Below, one piece after another: positions 24,598-35,506 of a stretch of DNA of 64,000 nt (positions are counted from its first letter, which is position 1; each line of letters begins with the position of its first letter). Below the pieces are notes generated by a model that saw nothing but the letters and a program-made list of their open reading frames with translations, was not told where the DNA came from and searched no databases. The position numbers and the translations under genes are program-made. The stretch spans positions 3,472,001 to 3,536,000 of the forward strand of contig NZ_OY970459.1 in assembly GCF_963853665.1 (NCBI RefSeq), given 5' to 3'. The DNA comes from Mycobacterium decipiens. GTDB taxonomy: Bacteria; Actinomycetota; Actinomycetes; Mycobacteriales; Mycobacteriaceae.

Positions 24598-24814
24598 CCG
24601 ATCGAACAGCCGGTCTCATCGCCGGCGGCCGGTCAGCAGGCGTGGTGGCGGGTTTGCTGCTGGCCCGTGCCGGCGTTTGACGTCACCGTGATGGAAACCA
24701 CGCGGATGGTGGGCTATCCGGCGGCGGTGGTCGGGTCCTCGAGCACGCAGCCGACTACGTCAGGCGCCCGGCATGCAGTGGACGCCAAGCAGGTCGACGG
24801 ATGATGATGTCGGG

Positions 24815-26857
24815 ATGGTCCTGCACGCCCAACCCTCCGACCAACCGACCGAAACTGCGCGCGAGGCTGAAGCGTTCGCCGGGGCATCGGACGGGGCGGC
24901 GGCCGCATCCATCGATCTCCGCGCACCCGCGACCGCTTCGTTCAGCGGAGCGCTACGCAACCCGTTTCCGCCGATTGCCGATTACGCGTTCCTGTCCGAC
25001 TGGGAGACGACGTGCCTGATCTCCCCGGCCGGTTCGGTGGAATGGATGTGTGTGCCCCGGCCGGACTCCCCCAGCGTGTTCGGCGCGATTTTGGACCGCA
25101 GCGCCGGCCATTTCCGACTGGGCCCCTACGGCGTATCGGTGCCCTCGGCGCGGCGCTACCTTCCCGGCAGCCTGATCATGGAAACCACCTGGCAGACCCA
25201 TACCGGCTGGCTGATCGTGCGCGACGCGCTGGTGATGGGAAAGTGGCACGACATCGAGCGGCGATCGCGAACGCACCGCCGCACCCCGATGGACTGGGAC
25301 GCCGAACACATCCTGCTGCGCACGGTGCGCTGCGTCAGCGGCACAGTCGAACTGATGATGAGCTGCGAACCGGCGTTCGACTACCACCGCCTCGGCGCCA
25401 GCTGGGAATACTCGGCCAATGCGTACGGCGAGGCGATCGCCCGTGCCTGCAAGCAGCCAGACGCACACCCCACCCTTCGGCTGACCACCAATCTGCGGAT
25501 CGGTCTGGAGGGCCGGGAGGCGCGAGCACGCACCCGGATGACCGAGGGTGACGACGTATTCGTCGCGCTGAGCTGGACCAAACACCCAGCGCCGCAGACC
25601 TACGAAGAGGCCGCCGACCGGATGTGGCAGACCACCGAGTGCTGGCGGCAGTGGATCAACATCGGCAACTTCCCCGACCATCCGTGGCGGGCGTACCTAC
25701 AGCGCAGCGCGCTCACGTTGAAAGGGTTGACGTACTCACCCACCGGCGCGTTGCTGGCCGCCAGCACCACGTCGCTGCCCGAAACGCCACAGGGCCATCG
25801 CAACTGGGACTACCGCTACGCGTGGATTCGCGATTCGACGTTCGCGTTGTGGGGGCTCTACACCCTCGGGCTGGACCGTGAGGCCGACGACTTTTTCGCA
25901 TTCATTGCCGACGTCTCCGGTGCCAACAACAATGATCCCAATCCGCTGCAGGTGATGTACGGCGTGGGTGGCGAGCGCAGCCTGGTCGAAGACGAACTGC
26001 ACCACCTGTCCGGCTATGACCACGCGCGCCCGGTCCGCATCGGTAACGGCGCCTACAACCAGGACCAGCACGACATCTGGGGCTCGATTCTGGACTCGTT
26101 CTACCTGCACGCCAAGTCACGTGAACAAGTCCCCGAGACCCTGTGGCCGGTGCTGAAGCGGCAGGTGGAGGAGGCCATCAAGCATTGGCGCGAGCCCGAC
26201 CGCGGAATCTGGGAGGTGCGCGGGGAGCCGCAGCACTTCACGTCGTCGAAGGTGATGTGCTGGGTGGCGCTGGACCGTGGGTCCAAGCTCGCCCTGCGGC
26301 AGGGCGAGAAGAGCTATGCGCAGCAATGGCGAGCCATCGCCGAGGAGATACGGGCCGACATACTGGAACACGGTGTGGACTCCCGGGGTGTGTTCACCCA
26401 GCGCTACGGCACCGACGCGCTGGACGCCTCGCTGCTGTTGGTGGTGCTGACTCGATTCCTGCCGCCGGATGACCCGCGGGTGCGCAACACCGTGCTGGCC
26501 ATAGCCAATGAACTCACCGAGGAAGGCCTGGTGCTGCGATACAAGGTCGAAGAGACCGACGACGGGCTGACCGGGGAGGAAGGCACCTTCACCATCTGCT
26601 CGTTCTGGCTGGTGTCGGCGCTGGTCGAGATCGGTGAGGTGAGCCGCGCCAAGCGCCTGTGCGAGCGGCTGCTGTCCTTCGCCAGCCCGCTGTACCTCTA
26701 CGCCGAGGAGATCGAGCCGCGGACCGGGCGGCACCTGGGCAACTTCCCCCAGGCGTTCACCCATCTGGCGCTGATCAACGCGGTGGTCCACGTGATCCGC
26801 GCCGAAGAAGAAGCAGACAGTTCCGGGATGTTCCAGCCCGCCAACGCACCCATGTAG
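24815..26857 (+). CDS. treH: Trehalase, glycoside hydrolase family 15 (Rv2402 equivalent)
   Basis: Hydrolyses trehalose to two glucose molecules in the cytosol. The mycobacterial enzyme is an inverting GH15 enzyme dependent on phosphate and Mg2+. From ATG 24815 (MVLHAQPSDQ) the protein has 680 aa. After a variable ~45-residue N-terminus comes the GH15 N-terminal beta domain (NPFPPIADYAFLSDWETTCL ... GSVEWMCVPRPDSPSVFG). The (alpha/alpha)6 barrel has GHRNWDYRYAWIRDS near residue 328, and DRGIWEVRGEPQHFTSSKVM near 462 carries the likely catalytic Glu. The barrel is highly similar to M. tuberculosis Rv2402 as recalled. An upstream in-frame ATG at 24773 is possible. Confidence 0.92.
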   Translation: MVLHAQPSDQPTETAREAEAFAGASDGAAAASIDLRAPATASFSGALRNPFPPIADYAFLSDWETTCLISPAGSVEWMCVPRPDSPSVFGAILDRSAGHFRLGPYGVSVPSARRYLPGSLIMETTWQTHTGWLIVRDALVMGKWHDIERRSRTHRRTPMDWDAEHILLRTVRCVSGTVELMMSCEPAFDYHRLGASWEYSANAYGEAIARACKQPDAHPTLRLTTNLRIGLEGREARARTRMTEGDDVFVALSWTKHPAPQTYEEAADRMWQTTECWRQWINIGNFPDHPWRAYLQRSALTLKGLTYSPTGALLAASTTSLPETPQGHRNWDYRYAWIRDSTFALWGLYTLGLDREADDFFAFIADVSGANNNDPNPLQVMYGVGGERSLVEDELHHLSGYDHARPVRIGNGAYNQDQHDIWGSILDSFYLHAKSREQVPETLWPVLKRQVEEAIKHWREPDRGIWEVRGEPQHFTSSKVMCWVALDRGSKLALRQGEKSYAQQWRAIAEEIRADILEHGVDSRGVFTQRYGTDALDASLLLVVLTRFLPPDDPRVRNTVLAIANELTEEGLVLRYKVEETDDGLTGEEGTFTICSFWLVSALVEIGEVSRAKRLCERLLSFASPLYLYAEEIEPRTGRHLGNFPQAFTHLALINAVVHVIRAEEEADSSGMFQPANAPM

Positions 26858-26939
26858 CAAGCCAGCACTGCCGCAAAGACGGAGAAAGTCTTCGGCGGGC
26901 CGACACGCATTTCTCGAGCGCGCTACATCCCCGATCAGC

Positions 26940-26945
26940 TAGGCT
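26940..26945 (+). promoter_or_regulatory. Possible -10 element of the glycosylation cassette
   Basis: TAGGCT lies in the 150-base gap between trehalase and the glycosyltransferase and fits the mycobacterial -10 form. It would start transcription near 26952, about 55 bases before the ATG at 27008. No clear -35 was seen. Confidence 0.3.
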
Positions 26946-27007
26946 CCCGATGGACAGACGCTCTCGAAATGGGTAACGGCGCACCGTTGTTCGAAAGGTT
27001 GAGCCAG

Positions 27008-27934
27008 ATGTTGTGGGTTGTGGTGCCCGCGTTCAACGAAGCCGAGAACCTCGAGGTAGTCATCCCGAAGGTGGTTGAGTCGGCGACGAGTATCGACGCT
27101 GGCGCGCGCGTGCTGGTTGTCGATGATGGTTCGACCGACGACACCACCGGCGTGATGGAGAAGGTGGCCGCGGAGTACGCGGGCATATCCGTAGAGTGCA
27201 TGGGCCGAAATCAGGGCAAAGCTGCGGCTCTCAGGCGCGGTTTTGGTATCGCGGTCGAGGGTGGCGCGACCATTGTGGCAATGATGGACGCCGACGGTCA
27301 GGACGATCCCACTGAACTCCCGCGCCTGGTAGCCCAGCTGGAACAAGGCCCAGGATTGGTCACGGGTGCGCGTACCGTTCGCAACGACCGCTTCGTCAAA
27401 CGGACCACGTCCAAGCTCTACAACCGAGTGACAGGCACTCTGTCGGGGACACCGGGACGGGACTTCAACTCTGGTTTCAAGGTGATGCGTGCCCAGGTTG
27501 CTACGGATGTAGCGCCGATGATGTATGGCGAACTCCACCGCTACCTGACGGTCATTGCGCACTGGCGCGGCTACCGCGTCGACGAATTGTCCGTACTGCA
27601 TCACCCCCGTTTGGCCGGGCGCAGCAAGTACGGGATTGCGCGCTTCTGGCGTGGGTTTCTGGATCTCCTCACGATCCGGTTCCTAATGACATACGAGAGC
27701 AGGCCATCCCATCTGTTCAGCGGCATGGGCCTCACCAGCCTGGCACTGGGCACCCTGACCTTGCTGTACCTCGTGTACGACAAGCTCATGCTGGGCCACC
27801 CCATCGGCGGCAGACCTCTGCTTGTCGCAGGCGTCCTGATGGTCCTTGTGGGCTTGCAGGTCTTCATCTTCGGATTGCTGGCCGAGTTGGTTATTTACCT
27901 GCACAATCGCAGTATGGTGCGCGAGACGCGATGA
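27008..27934 (+). CDS. GtrB-like family 2 glycosyltransferase (polyprenyl-phosphate sugar synthase type)
   Basis: Membrane-anchored GT2 enzyme of 308 aa, first of a four-gene cassette. The N-terminal GT-A domain has VVVPAFNEAENL, the nucleotide-binding VVDDGSTDDT, a GxNQGKAAALRRG block and the metal-binding DADGQDDP (near residue 100). The C-terminal 80 residues hold two transmembrane helices (about 236-256 and 266-292) and a short basic tail, the architecture of bacterial GtrB/dolichol-phosphate sugar synthases, which load a sugar on polyprenyl phosphate. The likely start is ATG 27008 (MLWVVVPAF), preceded by aaagg. The last base of the gene overlaps the next start by ATGA. Sugar unknown. 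I recall no equivalent in this part of H37Rv. Confidence 0.85.
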   Translation: MLWVVVPAFNEAENLEVVIPKVVESATSIDAGARVLVVDDGSTDDTTGVMEKVAAEYAGISVECMGRNQGKAAALRRGFGIAVEGGATIVAMMDADGQDDPTELPRLVAQLEQGPGLVTGARTVRNDRFVKRTTSKLYNRVTGTLSGTPGRDFNSGFKVMRAQVATDVAPMMYGELHRYLTVIAHWRGYRVDELSVLHHPRLAGRSKYGIARFWRGFLDLLTIRFLMTYESRPSHLFSGMGLTSLALGTLTLLYLVYDKLMLGHPIGGRPLLVAGVLMVLVGLQVFIFGLLAELVIYLHNRSMVRETR

Positions 27935-28650
27935 AACGCGCCTATGTCGGCATCACCCGCGCCTTGCGCACCTTCCTGGGCGCCACCGGCCTACTTCGCT
28001 TGCTTGACCGGTGGGCGAGGCGTTCCCGCACGGGCACCTGGGCGCGTTCGTTGCTGTCAATCTATGACTTCCACGACCTCCTCCTTCTTGACGTGCCCTG
28101 GTGGACATTCAAGTCCGCAGACGATGTGACGAACTTCCTTGCATCTCGCCCGAGGGCACGTGTCTTCGAATGGGGTTCTGGTGCCTCAACCGCGTGGCTC
28201 GCGCATCGCGCCGGCGAGGTGACCTCCATTGAGGACAATGCAGCGTGGGCCGACATGCTTCGGGCCCAGATATGTGGGACAAATGTGGCCACGGACAACG
28301 TCGACGTGCGTACCGTGAAGCCTGACCTGGCCAATTCACCCGACGCGGTCCGCTCCCGGAAGCGGGGGTTTGAGGGACTTGACTTCAGCAAGTACGTCGC
28401 AGCGATCGATGACTTAGAGGGCAACTTCGACTTGATCGTTGTCGATGGCCGGGCGCGCGAAGCATGTTTCGCAAAGGCACTCCCGCGCCTTGCAGCCGAT
28501 GGACTGCTCGTATTCGACAACGTTGACCGCAAACGCTACCGAGAGGCCATTAGCAAGGCACAGCTCCCCGTGCAGGTGAAATGGACCCGTGGCCTGACGC
28601 CCGCGCTGCCGTACCCGACTCGTACTGCGCTGGTTCGGTTGCAGGACTGA
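27931..28650 (+). CDS. Class I SAM-dependent methyltransferase-like protein
   Basis: Soluble protein of 239 aa. The Rossmann motif I appears as VFEWGSGASTAWLA (near residue 80), followed by EVTSIEDNAAWADM and a DLIVVDGRAREACF motif IV-like block (near 168), and DGLLVFDNVD after it. These fit a class I SAM methyltransferase fold (FkbM/TylF-like arrangement), although no catalytic substrate motif is recognisable. The N-terminus is basic and could associate with membrane. It is coupled by ATGA to the GT2 gene and ends 5 bases before the next gene, so it is part of the cassette. O-methylation of a sugar is a reasonable guess, not shown. Confidence 0.7.
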   Translation: MKRAYVGITRALRTFLGATGLLRLLDRWARRSRTGTWARSLLSIYDFHDLLLLDVPWWTFKSADDVTNFLASRPRARVFEWGSGASTAWLAHRAGEVTSIEDNAAWADMLRAQICGTNVATDNVDVRTVKPDLANSPDAVRSRKRGFEGLDFSKYVAAIDDLEGNFDLIVVDGRAREACFAKALPRLAADGLLVFDNVDRKRYREAISKAQLPVQVKWTRGLTPALPYPTRTALVRLQD

Positions 28651-28655
28651 ACTGG

Positions 28656-29546
28656 ATGGCACGCAGTCGGTGGATGAACCTGGCACGAGTCGCTTTCCTG
28701 GTGGCCGTTGCCCTTGGTGGTTGGTGGGGGTTTCGGGGACGCGAAGACGAACTGTGGGCCGAGTTGCGGAACACCTCGGTTGCCCAGCTGGCGACTGCGC
28801 TGGCGCTCACACTTGTGGGCTTGTTCATCACCGCGGTGATCTGGCGAACCATCATGGCAGGTCTGGGCGCCGAACTTGGTCTGCGTGATGCCCTGTCGAT
28901 CTTCTTCGTCGGGCAGCTAGGTAAATATGTGCCCGGCTCGGTGTGGACAGTCGGGGCGCAAGCGTACCTGGCGCGGCGGTGCGATATCCCGGCCCGCGTC
29001 ACCGCGGGTGCGGGCCTGATCTTCCTCGGTTACAACGTCGCCACCGCGGTCCTCGTCGGTGGGCTCGCCTGTATGGCCCAGGCGGTCGATGCGCCCTGGC
29101 CTCGGGCTGCGACCGTCGCGGGTGTCGTGGCGACACTGCTGGCGCTGACCCCGCCGGTGGTGCGTTGGCTTGGTAAGCGGCTCGCCGGCCGGACTATGCG
29201 GTTGGGCTGGACGCAGTCTGCACTTCTGATCGGGCTCATGGGCTGCGTCTGGGGACTGTACGCTCTCGCTCTGCTGAAACTCGCGTCGTCTGCCCGCCAT
29301 TTCTGGCTCCTGGCGGGAGCCTTCGCCATCTCATACGCCATCGGGGTCGTCGTCGTGTTCGCTCCGGCGGGGCTTGGCGCACGGGAAGCGATGTTTATTG
29401 TGCTGACGGCACCCGTGATCGGAGCAGCACCGGCCGCGGCGCTGGCGTTGCTCGCTCGCGCGGTGCATACCGCGGCTGATGTGTCACTCGCATTCGGGAG
29501 CTGGCTGATCGCGCGCGGCGGAAGCAAGCCTAGGGTGCGTTCGTGA
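28656..29546 (+). CDS. AglD/LPG-synthase-type polytopic membrane protein
   Basis: Integral membrane protein of 296 aa with about eight hydrophobic segments, of the lysylphosphatidylglycerol synthase transmembrane-region (YbhN/AglD-like, UPF0104) family. Family-type segments are the first conserved block FFVGQLGKYVPGSVWTVGAQ (near residue 85) and the late APAGLGAREAMFIVL (near 235). Related proteins accompany polyprenyl-phosphate sugar pathways in archaea and bacteria, where they may move lipid-linked sugars or phospholipids across the membrane; a flippase-like role is therefore inferred, not seen. ATG 28656 is chosen because it follows the previous stop by 5 bases and starts with basic residues before the first helix. 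It overlaps the next gene by GTGA. Confidence 0.75.
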   Translation: MARSRWMNLARVAFLVAVALGGWWGFRGREDELWAELRNTSVAQLATALALTLVGLFITAVIWRTIMAGLGAELGLRDALSIFFVGQLGKYVPGSVWTVGAQAYLARRCDIPARVTAGAGLIFLGYNVATAVLVGGLACMAQAVDAPWPRAATVAGVVATLLALTPPVVRWLGKRLAGRTMRLGWTQSALLIGLMGCVWGLYALALLKLASSARHFWLLAGAFAISYAIGVVVVFAPAGLGAREAMFIVLTAPVIGAAPAAALALLARAVHTAADVSLAFGSWLIARGGSKPRVRS

Positions 29547-31150
29547 ACCCGGCGCCCCGTTCTCCTCTGCGCCCGCCACTGCTGCTGGTAGCGGTCGCCA
29601 TCTTCTCCATCATCGCCGGTGCGGTGATGGGCTTCTACGGTGCCGTGACAACCGGCGTATCCACGGATGAACCTGTTCACGTAGAACGCCTGAGAGGATA
29701 TTTCAAGGATGGCCTCTACGTTCTTGACGAAGAACGTAAGGACCACCTGCACGAAATGCCGCGCCAGGCATACGTCTATGCGCCCGTGACGATGCTGGCA
29801 CTCCACGGTTTGACGGTCGCGGTAGGCGCAGAGAAGCCCGGCAGTGTTAGTACGGATGCCCGCGCTTTCCACGCCCGGCATGTCGGTGTTGTCCTCATTG
29901 GACTAGTGGGCGTAGCTGCCGCCGGGGCTTTGGGCGCGGTCGTAATGCGGGACAGGCGCTGGGGTTTGGTCGCCGCAGGCGGACTCTCCGCGTTGCCAAT
30001 GTGGACCGGCAGCACAATGTTCAATGTCAAGGACACTCCGGTCGCCACCGGGAATACGCTGATGGTCCTTGGGCTTGCGATGCTCATCATGAGTGACCCG
30101 CAGAAAGCGCTGACGCGTTGGTTTGCGCCAGCACTGCTCGCGGCCGGAACCTTCGTCATGGTTGGCACCCGCCCTGGAATGTGGCCAGCGGTCCTGGCGA
30201 GCACGTTCGCCGCGCTTGCTGTGCTCGCGATCGGCCGCAAGCTGAGTCGGCGGATCGCAACATCGCTCGGAATCGCGTTCGCGGTGGCTGTCGCAGGTTT
30301 GCTGGCGATTGATCATCGTGTATTCGGGCGTCCTGTCCAGCTGCTCATAAATTCAATCGAAGCCACCGCAAGCTACGGGCAATTTGAATACGAATCAAGG
30401 CGGGGTCGGGGTCTCATCCCTTTTCTCACAATAGTTGAAGTGCCTATCCTTATGCTTTTGCTGGCTACCGTGGGTGTTATTACGGCGACCGCGACGGTGG
30501 TTGCGTCGTTGAGGAAAGATCCGCCGCTGGCGGCAGGGCTAGTGGCGGTGGAAGCCCAAGCACTGACTTTCCCGCTTGTCGTGATCACGTTCGGCTTGGA
30601 TGCGGGCCTTCGACAACTATTATTCGCAGCACCGGCCGCAGCGGTTCTTGCAACGTTTGGCCTACGCTGGCTCTACTCCCGTTGGGAGCATCCCGGGCAG
30701 ACAGCGTGGTCGGCAATCGGCGCCTTGGCGATCGCTCTACCCCTCGTCACACAGGTGACGACTTTCCCGTATCAGTACTCCAACCGGAACATCTTGGCCG
30801 ACCTGCTTGGCGCGCCCGAAAACAACGACTACTGGCAAACTAGTGTTCCCGAGCTCCTCGACAAGGCACCAACTGACCACCCGTACACTTGCGAAACGGG
30901 CCCAGGAAAATACGCTATCTACCCGAATCACAGGTGCTTGTTCTGGTGGGGCTGGTGGTCGCTTCGACCGGAATGGAGGGAACACGGCCTCGCCAATCCA
31001 CCCGCAGTGCCCCCGCACACCGAGTTCTACGCAGTGGCGAGGGGGTACGTACCGCCCAACTGCCAACGGGTCAAAGAGGTAACGCGATGGCGCAACTTTC
31101 GCAACGTTGTCATGAGTAGACTCCTCTTGTGCACGACGGTGCCGGACTGA
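29543..31150 (+). CDS. GT-C fold membrane glycosyltransferase
   Basis: Polytopic 535-aa membrane protein, last of the cassette. About ten transmembrane helices occupy residues 12-425, and an extracytoplasmic C-terminal domain of about 100 residues follows (DNYWQTSVPELLDK ... CETGPGKYAIYPNHRCLFWWGWW, two Cys that could pair). The acidic motif STDEPVH in the first external loop (near residue 38) is the usual place for the DD/DE catalytic motif of GT-C enzymes (GT39/GT83-like), which transfer a sugar from a polyprenyl-phosphate donor. Start is GTG 29543, overlapping the previous stop. Acceptor unknown: a cell-wall glycan, lipid or protein are all possible. Confidence 0.75.
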   Translation: MNPAPRSPLRPPLLLVAVAIFSIIAGAVMGFYGAVTTGVSTDEPVHVERLRGYFKDGLYVLDEERKDHLHEMPRQAYVYAPVTMLALHGLTVAVGAEKPGSVSTDARAFHARHVGVVLIGLVGVAAAGALGAVVMRDRRWGLVAAGGLSALPMWTGSTMFNVKDTPVATGNTLMVLGLAMLIMSDPQKALTRWFAPALLAAGTFVMVGTRPGMWPAVLASTFAALAVLAIGRKLSRRIATSLGIAFAVAVAGLLAIDHRVFGRPVQLLINSIEATASYGQFEYESRRGRGLIPFLTIVEVPILMLLLATVGVITATATVVASLRKDPPLAAGLVAVEAQALTFPLVVITFGLDAGLRQLLFAAPAAAVLATFGLRWLYSRWEHPGQTAWSAIGALAIALPLVTQVTTFPYQYSNRNILADLLGAPENNDYWQTSVPELLDKAPTDHPYTCETGPGKYAIYPNHRCLFWWGWWSLRPEWREHGLANPPAVPPHTEFYAVARGYVPPNCQRVKEVTRWRNFRNVVMSRLLLCTTVPD

Positions 31151-31317
31151 CGAAGGGCTTATCCACGCATGCCAGTGAAAGTGAATTTGGTAGGCCTATC
31201 GCGACATCCGTAATTGCGCTATTTCCGATATAAGTACTATTTCTGCGTGGCATTCCACCGCCATGGAATGCCACAATTTCTACCGAAGACGGCAGCATTT
31301 TCTATGTACAGGCCTGA

Positions 31318-31922
31318 CGGCATCCGATCCAAGTCGAGCCGGATGTTTACTAGTGATGCGCGCCAAATCGGTTGTCGGTCACCGACATCACCGAACACCG
31401 TACCTACGAGGGCAAGGTGTACTGCGCGGTCGTGCTCGATACCTTCTCCCGGCGCGTAGTTGGGTATCGATCGACCCAAGCCGGACCGCCGCAGTGGGTC
31501 ACCAACGCACTGGGAATGGCCGTCGCCAACCGTGATCCGCAGGCGGGCGAGATCATCCACTCCGACCAGAGCGTGCAATTCACCTCCTGAGCCTTTCACC
31601 GACCGCGCCAAGCGCGCCCGGCTAGTGCCATCGATAGGGTAAATCGGAAACTGCTATGACAATGTGATAATCGAATCCTTCTGCGGCAGAATGCAAACCG
31701 AGCTGGCGGATATGCGATTTCGACTACCTGGACATCTTTCACAACGGCCAACGATGCCATTCCACTCTCGGAATGCGAACCCCGATAGAGTTCGAACTGT
31801 TTCACCAAACTGCTCAACCCGTGGCCAAAAACGAAGTTCCGCGACACCACGAAACTCGGGAGGCATCAGTCCGCGACTTCGAAGCCATGGGCTACCATGT
31901 CACCCTCGACCGCGCGTCCTGA
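31318..31922 (+). mobile_element. Degenerate IS3-family transposase (DDE integrase part)
   Basis: Three frames must be joined to read a transposase C-terminal half: NRLSVTDITEHRTYEGKV then YCAVVLDTFSRRVVGYRST and EIIHSDQSVQFTS (31372-31590, stopped by TGA where Trp is expected), then TDRAKRARLVPS and CYDNVIIESFCGRMQTELAD, then FDYLDIFHNGQRCHSTLGM and RTPIEFELFHQTAQPVAKNE to a stop at 31920-31922. These are the D, D and E blocks of an IS3-type rve domain. At least one premature stop and two indels make it inactive. The N-terminal part and terminal inverted repeats were not found. It separates the glycosylation cassette from ugd. Confidence 0.85.
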
Positions 31923-32126
31923 ACAAAATGTCACCCTAACAGCTCAACTCGCGACTATCGTCGCGTCAGGTCACCGGATTGCAACTGCGTTAGCGCGATG
32001 AAGCGATTTATCGACAACAGACCTCTATCGACAACAACCCTATTGGGTCGCTGAGCTGCGCCAACAAGGTTCGTCATTCCGGCGGTGGAACAACTCCGAT
32101 GCCTTGAACACGCGAAATCCATCTGG

Positions 32127-33476
32127 CTATCCCGTCTCGGCTCCTATTAATTTCACCCGCCGCCCGAATCCCCGATAAATCCAACCTGCCGCACTCCATG
32201 CCTGAGCATCCAGGAAGTTACGGCCGTCGACGATCACCGCGGATCGGACTATGGCCTTGAGAGCGGCGGGATCAATCGATCGGAACTGCGGCCACTCCGT
32301 GAGGGCCAACACGACGTCAGCTCCTGCGCAGGCATCGAACACAGACTTCGCGTAGTTCAGCGTGGGAAATACAGAGCGCGAGTTCTCCATGGCCTGCGGG
32401 TCGAAGACGCTGACCGCCGCGCCTTGCAATTGAATCTGTCCGGCAACGTTAAGAGCCGGCGAGTCCCGCACGTCGTCCGAATTCGGTTTGAACGCGCAGC
32501 CCAGCACGGCGACCTTGGCCCCTAACAGGTCGCCTCCGCAGATGTCCCTTGTTATGTCGACCATCCGTCTTCGCCTGCTCATATTGATGCTGTCGACTTC
32601 ACGCAGAAACGTCAGCAGCTGATTCGCGCCCAGTTCGCCGGCGCGTGCCATTAGAGCACGAATATCTTTCGGCAGACAGCCTCCGCCGAAACCAAGCCCT
32701 GCGTTCAGAAATCTGCGCCCGATGCGCCCATCAAACCCTAATGCATCCGCCAAGACTGTCACGTCCGCGTCCGTCGCCTCACAGACCTCAGCGATCGCGT
32801 TGATGAACGACACCTTTGTGGCCAGAAACGCATTCGCTGCGGACTTCACTAATTCGGCCGTCGCAAGATCTGTCACCATGAATGGTACGCCTTCATCAAA
32901 TAGTTTCGCGTACACTTCCCGCGCGACACTCTCCGCCCGGCCAGGTCCTTTACCGTCGACGCCCAGAACCACACGATCGGGATGCAGCGTATCTTGAATC
33001 GCAAACCCTTCCCTTAAAAACTCCGGATTCCATGCGACCTCGACCGCATCGCCCGCGGGGGCTAATTCTCGTGCGATCTTGTTCAGTCGGGCGGCCGTAC
33101 CAACGGGAACGGTCGACTTTCCGAAGATAACTGCCGGGTTCACGAGTAGGGGCGCCAGACTGGTCAATGCCGCATCAACAAAGCTCAAATCGGCGGCGTA
33201 TTCGCCCTTCTTTTGCGGCGTACCGACAGTGATAAAGAATACGCCCGCGAAGCTAGCCGCCTCCTCGTACGAAGTGGAGAACTTTAGGCGACCATTATCA
33301 AGACCACCCCCCAGGAGGTCAGAAAGGCCCGGTTCAAAAAATGGAGGGTCGCCCGCGGTAAGTCTAGCTATTTTGCCGGTGTCAGTATCCACGCCGAGAA
33401 CCTCATGACCGAGTTCTGCCATACAGGCCGCGTGCGTGGCTCCGAGATATCCAGTTCCCACGACCGCAATTCTCAC
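32127..33476 (-). CDS. ugd: UDP-glucose 6-dehydrogenase
   Basis: Oxidises UDP-glucose to UDP-glucuronate with two NAD+, supplying glucuronate for surface glycans. The 449-aa protein has an N-terminal Rossmann motif GTGYLGATHA (residues 7-16), the LSFVDAAL and GKSTVPVGTA blocks, the central EFLREG motif, the catalytic Cys in GGGCLPKD (near residue 260) and a C-terminal UDP-binding domain. Codon and base use are unlike the neighbours: it is visibly AT-richer, with frequent third-position A/T, pointing to transfer. It faces the glycosylation cassette across an IS remnant, and it lies at or next to the place where lppR sits in M. tuberculosis. Confidence 0.9.
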   Translation of the reverse strand: MRIAVVGTGYLGATHAACMAELGHEVLGVDTDTGKIARLTAGDPPFFEPGLSDLLGGGLDNGRLKFSTSYEEAASFAGVFFITVGTPQKKGEYAADLSFVDAALTSLAPLLVNPAVIFGKSTVPVGTAARLNKIARELAPAGDAVEVAWNPEFLREGFAIQDTLHPDRVVLGVDGKGPGRAESVAREVYAKLFDEGVPFMVTDLATAELVKSAANAFLATKVSFINAIAEVCEATDADVTVLADALGFDGRIGRRFLNAGLGFGGGCLPKDIRALMARAGELGANQLLTFLREVDSINMSRRRRMVDITRDICGGDLLGAKVAVLGCAFKPNSDDVRDSPALNVAGQIQLQGAAVSVFDPQAMENSRSVFPTLNYAKSVFDACAGADVVLALTEWPQFRSIDPAALKAIVRSAVIVDGRNFLDAQAWSAAGWIYRGFGRRVKLIGAETG

Positions 33477-33583
33477 TTCTCAGGATCCTTCGCTATTTCG
33501 TAGTCAGTTGTTTAACTGAGCTCCTTAATTCTCGCCGGTACAGTGAATGTACAACTTCAACGAACCCCAACGACAGGCTTGGC

Positions 33584-35506
33584 CTACTTCTTGCCCTTGT
33601 CCCCCGCGGCATCGGTGGACAATGCCGCGACGAAGGCCTCCTGCGGCACTTCGACCCGCCCGATGGTCTTCATCCGCTTCTTGCCTTCCTTCTGCTTTTC
33701 CAGAAGTTTGCGCTTACGGGTGATGTCACCGCCGTAGCACTTGGAGAGCACGTCCTTTCGGATCGCGCGGATGTTCTCGCGCGCAATGATTTTCGAGCCG
33801 ATCGCGGCCTGCACCGGCACCTCGAACTGCTGACGTGGGATCAACTCCTTGAGCTTGGTCGTCATCTTGTTGCCGTATGCGTAAGCCCCGTCTTTGTGGA
33901 CGATCGCAGAGAATGCGTCGACGGCCTCGCCCTGCAGCAGAATGTCGACCTTGACCAAGGACGCCTCCTGCTCGCCGGCCTCCTCGTAATCGAGGCTGGC
34001 ATAGCCACGGGTACGTGACTTCAGTGAGTCGAAGAAGTCGAAGATGATCTCCCCGAGCGGCATCGTGTAGCGCAGTTCCACCCGCTCGGGCGAGAGATAG
34101 TCCATACCCCCCAACTCACCGCGGCGCGACTGGCACAGTTCCATGATGGTGCCGATGAACTCACTGGGCGCGATGATGGTGGTCTGCACGACGGGCTCGT
34201 ACACGGTGCGGATCTTGCCCGTGGGCCAGTCCGATGGATTGGTCACGACAACGGCTGCTTGGCTTCCTGGGTCCGCCCCGCCTTCCAATTCGACGCGGTA
34301 GACCACATTGGGGGACGTCGAGATCAGGTCCAGGTCGAACTCACGTTCCAGCCGCTCGCGGGTGATCTCCATGTGCAGTAGGCCCAGGAAGCCGCACCGG
34401 AACCCGAAACCCAGCGCCACCGACGTTTCCGGTTCATAGGTCAGCGCCGCGTCGTTGAGTTGCAGCTTGTCCAGGGCGTCACGCAGATTCGGGTAATCCG
34501 AGCCGTCGACGGGATAGAGCCCCGAGTAGACCATCGGCTTGGGTTCGCGGTAGCCCGTCAGCGCTTCGGTGGCACCATGGCGGGCGGTCGTTACGGTGTC
34601 GCCGACCTTGGACTGCCGGACGTCCTTGACCCCGGTGATCAGGTAGCCCACCTCCCCGACACCAAGGCCTTCGCTAGCCTTCGGTTCCGGTGAGACGATG
34701 CCGACCTCGAGCAATTCGTGGGTGGCGCCGGTCGACATCATCGCGATGCGTTCGCGCGGGGTGATTTTGCCGTCGACCACGCGGACGTAGGTCACCACGC
34801 CGCGATAGATGTCGTAGACGGAGTCGAAAATCATTGCGCGAGCGGGTGCTTCGGCGTCACCGTGCGGGGGCGGCACCTGCCGAACCACCTCGTCGAGCAG
34901 TTCAGCCACGCCTTCACCGGTTTTGCCGGACACCCGTAACACATCACCGGGCTCGCAGCCGATGATATGGGCGATCTCGCCCGCGTAGCGGTCCGGGTCG
35001 GCGGCCGGCAGGTCGATCTTGTTGAGCACCGGGATGATCGTCAGGTCCCGGTCCAGCGCCAGGTAGAGATTGGCCAGGGTCTGGGCCTCGATGCCCTGGG
35101 CGGCGTCGACCAGCAACACCGCCCCCTCACAGGCCTCCAGTGCACGCGACACCTCGTAGCTGAAGTCGACGTGACCTGGTGTGTCGATCAGATGTAGCAC
35201 GTAATCTTGGTCACCCACCCGCCATGGCAGTCGCACATTCTGAGCCTTGATCGTGATACCACGTTCCCGCTCGATGTCCATCCGGTCCAGGTATTGGGCC
35301 CGCATCGAGCGTTCGTCGACCACCCCGGTGAGCTGCAGCATTCGGTCGGCCAGCGTCGACTTGCCGTGGTCGATGTGGGCGATGATGCAAAAGTTCCGAA
35401 TCTGCGCCGGCGGGGTAAAGGTGTTGTCGGCGAAACTGCTGATGGGAATCTCCTGGAGCGGGGGTTTGCGGGTATCCAGCCTATCCGTGCGGCGCAGCCG
35501 GGACAC
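33584..35506 (-). CDS. lepA: Elongation factor 4 LepA
   Basis: Ribosome-associated GTPase (EF4) thought to act on stalled or mis-translocated ribosomes or in initiation. The 640-aa protein has G1 AHIDHGKST (near residue 43), switch I RERGIT, G3 DTPGHVDF, G4 NKID, then domains II, III, V and the LepA-specific C-terminal domain ending in lysines. Near residue 400 the sequence [20 protein letters not shown] differs from the remembered M. tuberculosis protein. ATG 35506 (MSRLRRTDR) sits 46 bases from the divergent gene at 35552, so the short gap holds both promoters. Confidence 0.97.

What the first reader, a model, noticed from the sequence alone, without database searches (positions are those of the whole stretch)
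26940..31150. Four-gene Gtr-like membrane glycosylation cassette inserted after trehalase
Four tightly coupled genes (ATGA, 5-bp and GTGA junctions) encode a GtrB-like GT2 with two C-terminal helices, a methyltransferase-fold protein, an AglD/LPG-synthase-type membrane protein and a GT-C transferase with an extracytoplasmic domain. Seen: coupling, domain motifs (DADGQDDP, STDEPVH) and helices. Known: GT2/GtrB enzymes make polyprenyl-phosphate sugars and GT-C enzymes use them outside the membrane. Inferred: one complete pathway loads a sugar on a lipid carrier, moves it out and transfers it to a surface acceptor, possibly with O-methylation. I do not recall it in H37Rv, where lppR follows Rv2402. 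Product and acceptor are unknown.
Basis: partly seen in the sequence, partly recalled or inferred. Interest (0 to 1): 0.75.

Follow-up and report, generated by a model that had tools for sequence, protein, structure and literature searches.

The report
Transplanted four-gene surface-sugar export cassette
A mycobacterium carries four linked genes, otherwise seen mainly in Nocardioides relatives, that probably load a sugar onto a membrane lipid, methylate it, flip it outward and attach it to a surface molecule; the sugar and its target are unknown.

Summary
Four intact + strand genes, overlapping or 5 bases apart, lie between trehalase and lepA. A is an ArnC/GtrB-type polyprenyl-phosphate GT2. 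B is a class I methyltransferase. C is a PF03706 putative flippase (AglD C-terminal/MprF type). D matches no Pfam family, but its AlphaFold model matches ArnT, STT3/AglB, PMT and Aft enzymes: a GT-C fold.

The set is real and co-inherited. D occurs in 30 of 341 Nocardioidaceae genomes; 23 of those 30 have all four genes contiguous, always ordered A-D-B-C. In the window's own genus D was found in 1 of 297 genomes and an orthologue-level B in 1 of 396 (the window's own both times). Five of five relatives have only lipoprotein-like ORF(s) at this site. The cassette was acquired, from a donor not sampled here.

[quoted passage not shown] B-C also sits in a second Nocardioidaceae locus type (7 of 7 read) between another GT2 and GT-C-like genes, ordered GT2-B-C-GT-C as in the window, so B-C looks like a reusable methylate-and-flip module. 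No activity is shown. New variant of a known kind.

The parts
26969..27934 (+). gene A: GT2 polyprenyl-phosphate sugar synthase of the ArnC/GtrB/DPMS kind (possible alternative start 27008)
   Evidence: PF00535 9.5e-24; closest solved sequences ArnC 2e-28, GtrB sll0501 2e-23; GtrB D94/D96, R122, R200 correspond to D107/D109, R135, R214 (read off the alignment), all invariant in 34 A rows
27931..28650 (+). gene B: class I SAM methyltransferase (Methyltransf_24-like), probably a sugar O-methyltransferase
28656..29546 (+). gene C: PF03706 multi-span membrane protein, putative lipid-sugar flippase
   Evidence: PF03706 1.3e-14 (tested from the upstream ATG 28581); invariant GKYxPGxVW and APAGxGxR in 26 rows; flippase prediction for the family in PMC5898192 (passages)
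29543..31150 (+). gene D: GT-C fold membrane glycosyltransferase with conserved D42-E43 in the first outer loop and a C-terminal domain with four conserved cysteines

Best explanation
The four genes form one horizontally acquired multi-component transmembrane glycosylation system. A transfers a sugar from a nucleotide donor to polyprenyl phosphate (decaprenyl phosphate in mycobacteria, recalled) on the inner face of the membrane. B, a cytosolic methyltransferase, O-methylates that sugar before export. C flips the lipid-linked sugar to the outer face. D, a GT-C enzyme, transfers it to an envelope acceptor, a glycan, glycolipid or protein. Shown: gene set, coupling, families and folds, conservation of the set elsewhere, absence from relatives. 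Inferred: each catalytic step, that B acts on this sugar, the flippase role of C, the sugar and the acceptor.
Against: No biochemistry. D departs from 8 of 61 otherwise invariant columns, which allows new specificity or decay. GtrB's proposed catalytic acid D157 falls on G169 of A in that alignment; the nearby invariant D165 aligns with an Asp of ArnC instead. A-D occurs without B and C beside it in 2 of 30 genomes (G729, G973), A-D-C without B in 1 (G930), D alone in 1 (G1031), and 2 weak D hits have none of the genes nearby, so B is not strictly needed next to A-D. C has no solved relative by sequence and its fold was not modelled here. No sugar-nucleotide gene was recognised beside the cassette, but flanks were only clustered, few were annotated.
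Confidence: 0.7

Rival explanations
1. A three-component glycosylation system (A, C, D) in which B does not methylate the transferred sugar but another envelope molecule, or caps a glycan.
For: A-D loci without B exist (G729, G973 of 30). B's closest fold matches include O-methyltransferases but also RNA and other methyltransferases at nearly the same Z, so fold does not name the substrate.
Against: B is next to C on the same strand in 17 of 20 B loci and in 7 of 7 loci with a different GT2, which ties it to the flippase step rather than to one GT2 or GT-C.
Confidence: 0.17
2. D is a protein O-glycosyltransferase (PMT-like) and the product is a glycoprotein, rather than a modified polysaccharide or glycolipid.
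Confidence: 0.3
3. The island is a relic: acquired by a mobile element and no longer functional in this host.
For: Transposase remnant in broken frames downstream; atypical composition (GC3 0.675-0.757 v 0.844 and 0.821 in the flanking genes); D departs from 8 of 61 invariant columns; no close relative for a selection test.
Against: Four open frames over 4.2 kb with tight junctions kept, and catalytic-type residues kept in A, B and D.
Confidence: 0.12

Closest known systems
Multi-component (three-component) transmembrane glycosylation systems of Gram-positive bacteria, e.g. CsbB-GtcA-YfhO (PMC8035078 section 8)
   Same: GT-A-fold polyprenyl-phosphate sugar synthase, a flippase, a GT-C transferase with a DE/DxD-type motif; GT-C members of low mutual similarity.
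   Different: Flippase is PF03706, not GtrA or Wzx; a methyltransferase is part of the set; all four genes in one tight cassette.
GtrA-GtrB-Gtr O-antigen modification (described in PMC11127046 passages)
   Same: A belongs to the GtrB kind; logic load, flip, transfer. One D homologue (P0007) has a precomputed GtrII domain and 1 of 27 scanned members a weak GtrII match, E 0.023.
   Different: No GtrA; D of the window has no Pfam match; no relative found in the phage or viral scans run.
Archaeal pfam03706 / AglD-like GT2 / PMT-STT3-like neighbourhoods (PMC5898192 passages)
   Same: The same three protein kinds side by side; PF03706 predicted to flip the lipid-linked sugar.
   Different: No methyltransferase in the passages seen; archaeal, dolichol-based.
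ArnC-ArnT lipid A modification
   Same: A's closest solved relatives are ArnC; D's second-best VIA row is ArnT.
   Different: No lipid A in this host; no Arn sugar-nucleotide genes recognised near the cassette.
Three-component pentofuranose systems with GT136 (PMC11127046)
   Same: Lipid-linked donor, flippase, GT-C.
   Different: There the synthase is related to DPPRS (UbiA type) and the flippase is of the MATE family.

Membership tests
Multi-component transmembrane glycosylation system | GT-A/GT2 enzyme that makes a polyprenyl-phosphate sugar | tested here: met
   Sequence level only: ArnC/GtrB relatives and key residues; activity not testable here.
Multi-component transmembrane glycosylation system | Flippase of GtrA or Wzx type | tested here: not met
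   C matches PF03706 and no other Pfam family at E<=1; no GtrA/Wzx match in any of the four proteins. A different proposed flippase family stands in its place, so it works like, but is not, the classical composition.
Multi-component transmembrane glycosylation system | GT-C transferase with DxD or modified DxD in an outer loop | tested here: met
   Fold; D42 invariant and E43 nearly invariant right after the first helix. That the loop is outside is inferred from the fold.
Multi-component transmembrane glycosylation system | Transfers sugar to an envelope polymer | not testable with these tools
   Needs biochemistry.
Gtr (GtrA-GtrB-Gtr) cluster | GtrA gene present | tested here: not met
   No GtrA match among the four proteins.
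AglD | GT2 and PF03706 fused in one protein | tested here: not met
   Separate genes A and C.
PF03706 flippase-like family | Match above the curated cut-off | tested here: met
   54.8 bits v 33.4. The NCBIfam flippase-like model TIGR00374 was not reached (14.1 v 43.2 bits).
Class I SAM methyltransferase | Rossmann-type fold with glycine-rich SAM motif | tested here: met
   Model and matches; EWGSGAS invariant in 27 rows. PF13578 itself just missed its cut-off.
GtrII (PF14264) | Pfam match of D | tested here: not met
   Window D: no family at E 0.05; 1 of 27 members at E 0.023.

The most novel reading that the evidence does not exclude
B and C form a methylate-and-flip module in which O-methylation licenses the lipid-linked sugar for export. 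GT2 and GT-C partners are swapped around this module (A with D; another GT2 with PMT_2/DUF2142-type genes), giving a four-component class of transmembrane glycosylation whose hallmark is an O-methylated surface sugar, and its transfer gave one mycobacterial species an envelope glycan not made by its relatives.
Probability: 0.3. Interest if true: 0.72.

Novelty: new variant of a known kind. Interest (0 to 1): 0.5.

Why it matters
Surface sugars of mycobacteria and their actinobacterial relatives decide phage adsorption, immune recognition and strain typing (general knowledge). A self-contained load-methylate-flip-transfer set offers a defined test of whether PF03706 proteins flip polyprenyl-linked sugars, a role so far predicted rather than shown in what I read (PMC5898192 passages), and of why a cytosolic methyltransferase keeps company with a flippase. 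D belongs to a group of GT-C-fold proteins without a Pfam family in 26 of 27 members scanned at E 0.01 or without a curated-level match in any, so it may found a new glycosyltransferase family.

Tried and rejected
Phage or plasmid origin: no D relative in the 72,556 plasmid records or 50,697 phage records, none confirmed for D or B in the viral contig scans (pattern-based, so a weak negative); six plasmid records hold B-like proteins at 27-42%.

A direct Nocardioides donor: A and B of the window sit on long branches (0.47 and 0.5) without a well-supported sister; B falls inside a 49-row clade of cassette-type B proteins (96/92), A in an open 8-row group (90/97) (roots at midpoint, B tree used every fourth of P0122-P0240). 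Its GC3 is lower than that of its flanks. So an unsampled donor fits better.

UGD as a fifth member: no UGD match in any of 19 loci, and none in the 38 loci. Its GC3 is lower still (0.627), it lies on the other strand beyond a transposase remnant, so it is left out.

A remnant of the lipoprotein gene: five lipoprotein sequences from relatives found no convincing match in the window (best E 0.015, outside the island).

Sequence links of D to solved structures: only two insignificant hits (E 0.21 and 0.8). C likewise (E 0.011 to a repeat protein, taken as chance). A profile search with 27 D proteins gave 150 hits among the 7998 scored candidates (listed 120), no characterised one named.

Literature: searches list no paper on this four-gene set; this covers only the open library held and those terms (61 and 84 returned 0 and 3 papers; 60 was swamped by plant papers).

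Crude gene calling produced spurious and missed ORFs; counts were therefore taken from the tblastn maps.

First genome-contig scan with D alone found nothing; the second, with an alignment, gave 19 loci. The A rows include some such duplicates and were limited to over 50% identity.

An earlier count said all top 43 VIA rows are GT-C; two of them are GPI transamidase chains (7w72_U, 8imx_U). That entry also called the B-like gene and UGD of L121 'next to' each other; they are about 4.7 kb apart.

Full report
1. What is there. Four open frames on the + strand fill 26969-31150, between trehalase (24773-26857, +) and, past a transposase remnant and a UDP-glucose dehydrogenase-type gene (32127-33476, -), lepA (33584-35506, -) (the names trehalase and lepA are recalled from sequence and synteny, with GH15 and lepA annotations under BLAST hits). 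The junctions are ATGA, a 5-base gap and GTGA.

2. Gene A. PF00535 at 9.5e-24. Closest solved sequences: ArnC (2e-28), GtrB sll0501 (2e-23), DPMS (3.2e-11). Reading the alignment with GtrB's residues as given in PMC4728340 (passages), D94/D96 fall on D107/D109, R122 on R135 and R200 on R214. All four are invariant in 34 A rows. D157, GtrB's proposed catalytic acid, falls on G169; the invariant D165 aligns with an Asp of ArnC. A is thus of the polyprenyl-phosphate sugar synthase kind; its sugar is not readable from this.

4. Gene C. PF03706 at 1.3e-14. Among 26 rows GKYxPGxVW and APAGxGxR are invariant. PMC5898192 (passages) argues that this family flips lipids or lipid-linked saccharides, from MprF and from archaeal neighbourhoods with an AglD-like GT2 and a PMT/STT3-like protein. 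That is a prediction in print, not a shown activity.

6. Who else has the set. A search of 5.8 billion proteins with D gave 147 hits among the 7999 candidates scored; the listed 120 other than itself lie at 34-40% identity, named sources being Nocardioides, Aeromicrobium, Marmoricola and Nocardioidaceae. B gave 1391 hits, best 68%. In whole genomes: D in 1 of 297 genomes of the window's genus, itself; B in 3 of 396, of which two are partial hits at 35-37%; D in 11 of 394 genomes of the class, itself included; B in 18 of 197 Nocardioidaceae; D in 30 of 341 Nocardioidaceae.

7. Gene order. Of these 30, 23 have A-D-B-C on one strand, six of them with a further D before A (D-A-D-B-C); 1 has A-D-C, 2 A-D, 1 D-A-D up to a contig end, 1 D only, and 2 weak hits have none of the genes nearby by tblastn with the window's proteins. 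Outside the family, G652 and G681 also have A-D-B-C, while G562, G730, G429, G601, G609 and G776 have a distant D with only a distant GT2, and in three a distant C, in the stretch. None of the 38 loci has the window's order A-B-C-D. In the 19 loci, A is 59-65% identical to the window's, B 51-65%, C 40-51% and D 32-41%: the transferase diverges fastest, as would suit changing acceptors (inference).

8. A second setting of B-C. In 8 of 20 B loci (7 genomes) the gene before B is a different GT2 (26-37% to A). In the 7 such loci read at length, B and C are adjacent on one strand (7 of 7), a DUF2142-type gene lies downstream of C (7 of 7) and a PMT_2-type gene in 4 of 7. The L109 DUF2142-type protein has NDEPAH in its sequence, like D's TDEPVH. 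So the order here is GT2-B-C-GT-C-like, the order of the window. Overall C stands beside B on the same strand in 17 of 20 B loci, on the other strand in 2, and is missing in 1. One genome, G729, has both an A-D locus and a GT2-B-C locus.

9. How it came here. (41 genomes, DNA 26500-34500): the listed matches of other genomes inside 26867-31360 are only two short ones (35 and 42 bases; the list is cut), whereas the trehalase end and lepA match relatives of the genus at about 79-89%. In five relatives read at the site, trehalase and lepA are 0.75-1.7 kb apart with lipoprotein-like ORF(s) only, and no A-D match (5 of 5); in the window they are 6.7 kb apart and no lipoprotein remnant was found. 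GC3 is 0.757, 0.724, 0.747 and 0.675 for A-D against 0.844 (trehalase) and 0.821 (lepA). Trees place A and B within the cassette families on long branches, without a firm sister. This is an acquisition that replaced the lipoprotein gene; the donor is not sampled and the gene order differs from the Nocardioidaceae cassettes.

10. Mechanism. The anatomy equals the multi-component transmembrane glycosylation scheme of PMC8035078 (abstract and section 8 read): GT-A synthase, flippase, GT-C. It departs in flippase family and in the methyltransferase. Since B is soluble (no hydrophobic helix) it must act inside, so on the nucleotide sugar or the lipid-linked sugar, if on the sugar at all. Its tie to C rather than to one GT2 or GT-C suggests that the methylated lipid-sugar is what C carries. 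That is inference; I give the four-step pathway 0.7 and the licensing idea 0.3.

11. Novelty. No paper on this set appeared in the searches. PMC11127046 (abstract and passages) and PMC8035078 describe the nearest systems. I call it a new variant of a known kind.

Noticed in passing
window 31357-31936: Remnant of a DDE transposase (IS3-like by recalled motifs) spread over several + frames; short matches at 73-84% elsewhere in relatives.
   Followed up: partly
window 32127-33476: Second UDP-glucose dehydrogenase-type gene of the genome, low GC3 (0.627); the other copy (G000:C1 about 512296-513542, L081) is 66% identical in protein. Also foreign-looking; possible source of UDP-glucuronate.
   Followed up: partly
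L121 (G276): Another genome of the same genus has a distant B-like protein (28-35%) about 4.7 kb from a UGD-type gene 62% identical to the window's.
   Followed up: no
L109, L111, L115, L107, L110, L112, L113: Operon-like GT2-B-C followed by DUF2142-type and, in 4 of 7, PMT_2-type genes in Nocardioidaceae: a sister system.
   Followed up: partly
L102, L103, L104, L152, L153, L162: Two D copies flank A (D-A-D-B-C), 36-40% identical to the window's D, suggesting one lipid-sugar feeding two transferases.
   Followed up: no
P0002, P0003 and other 540-580 aa D forms v 650-750 aa forms: D comes in a short form, like the window's, and a long form with a C-terminal extension of about 130 residues.
   Followed up: no
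L076 1701-3377: One relative has two lipoprotein-like genes in tandem at the site.
   Followed up: no
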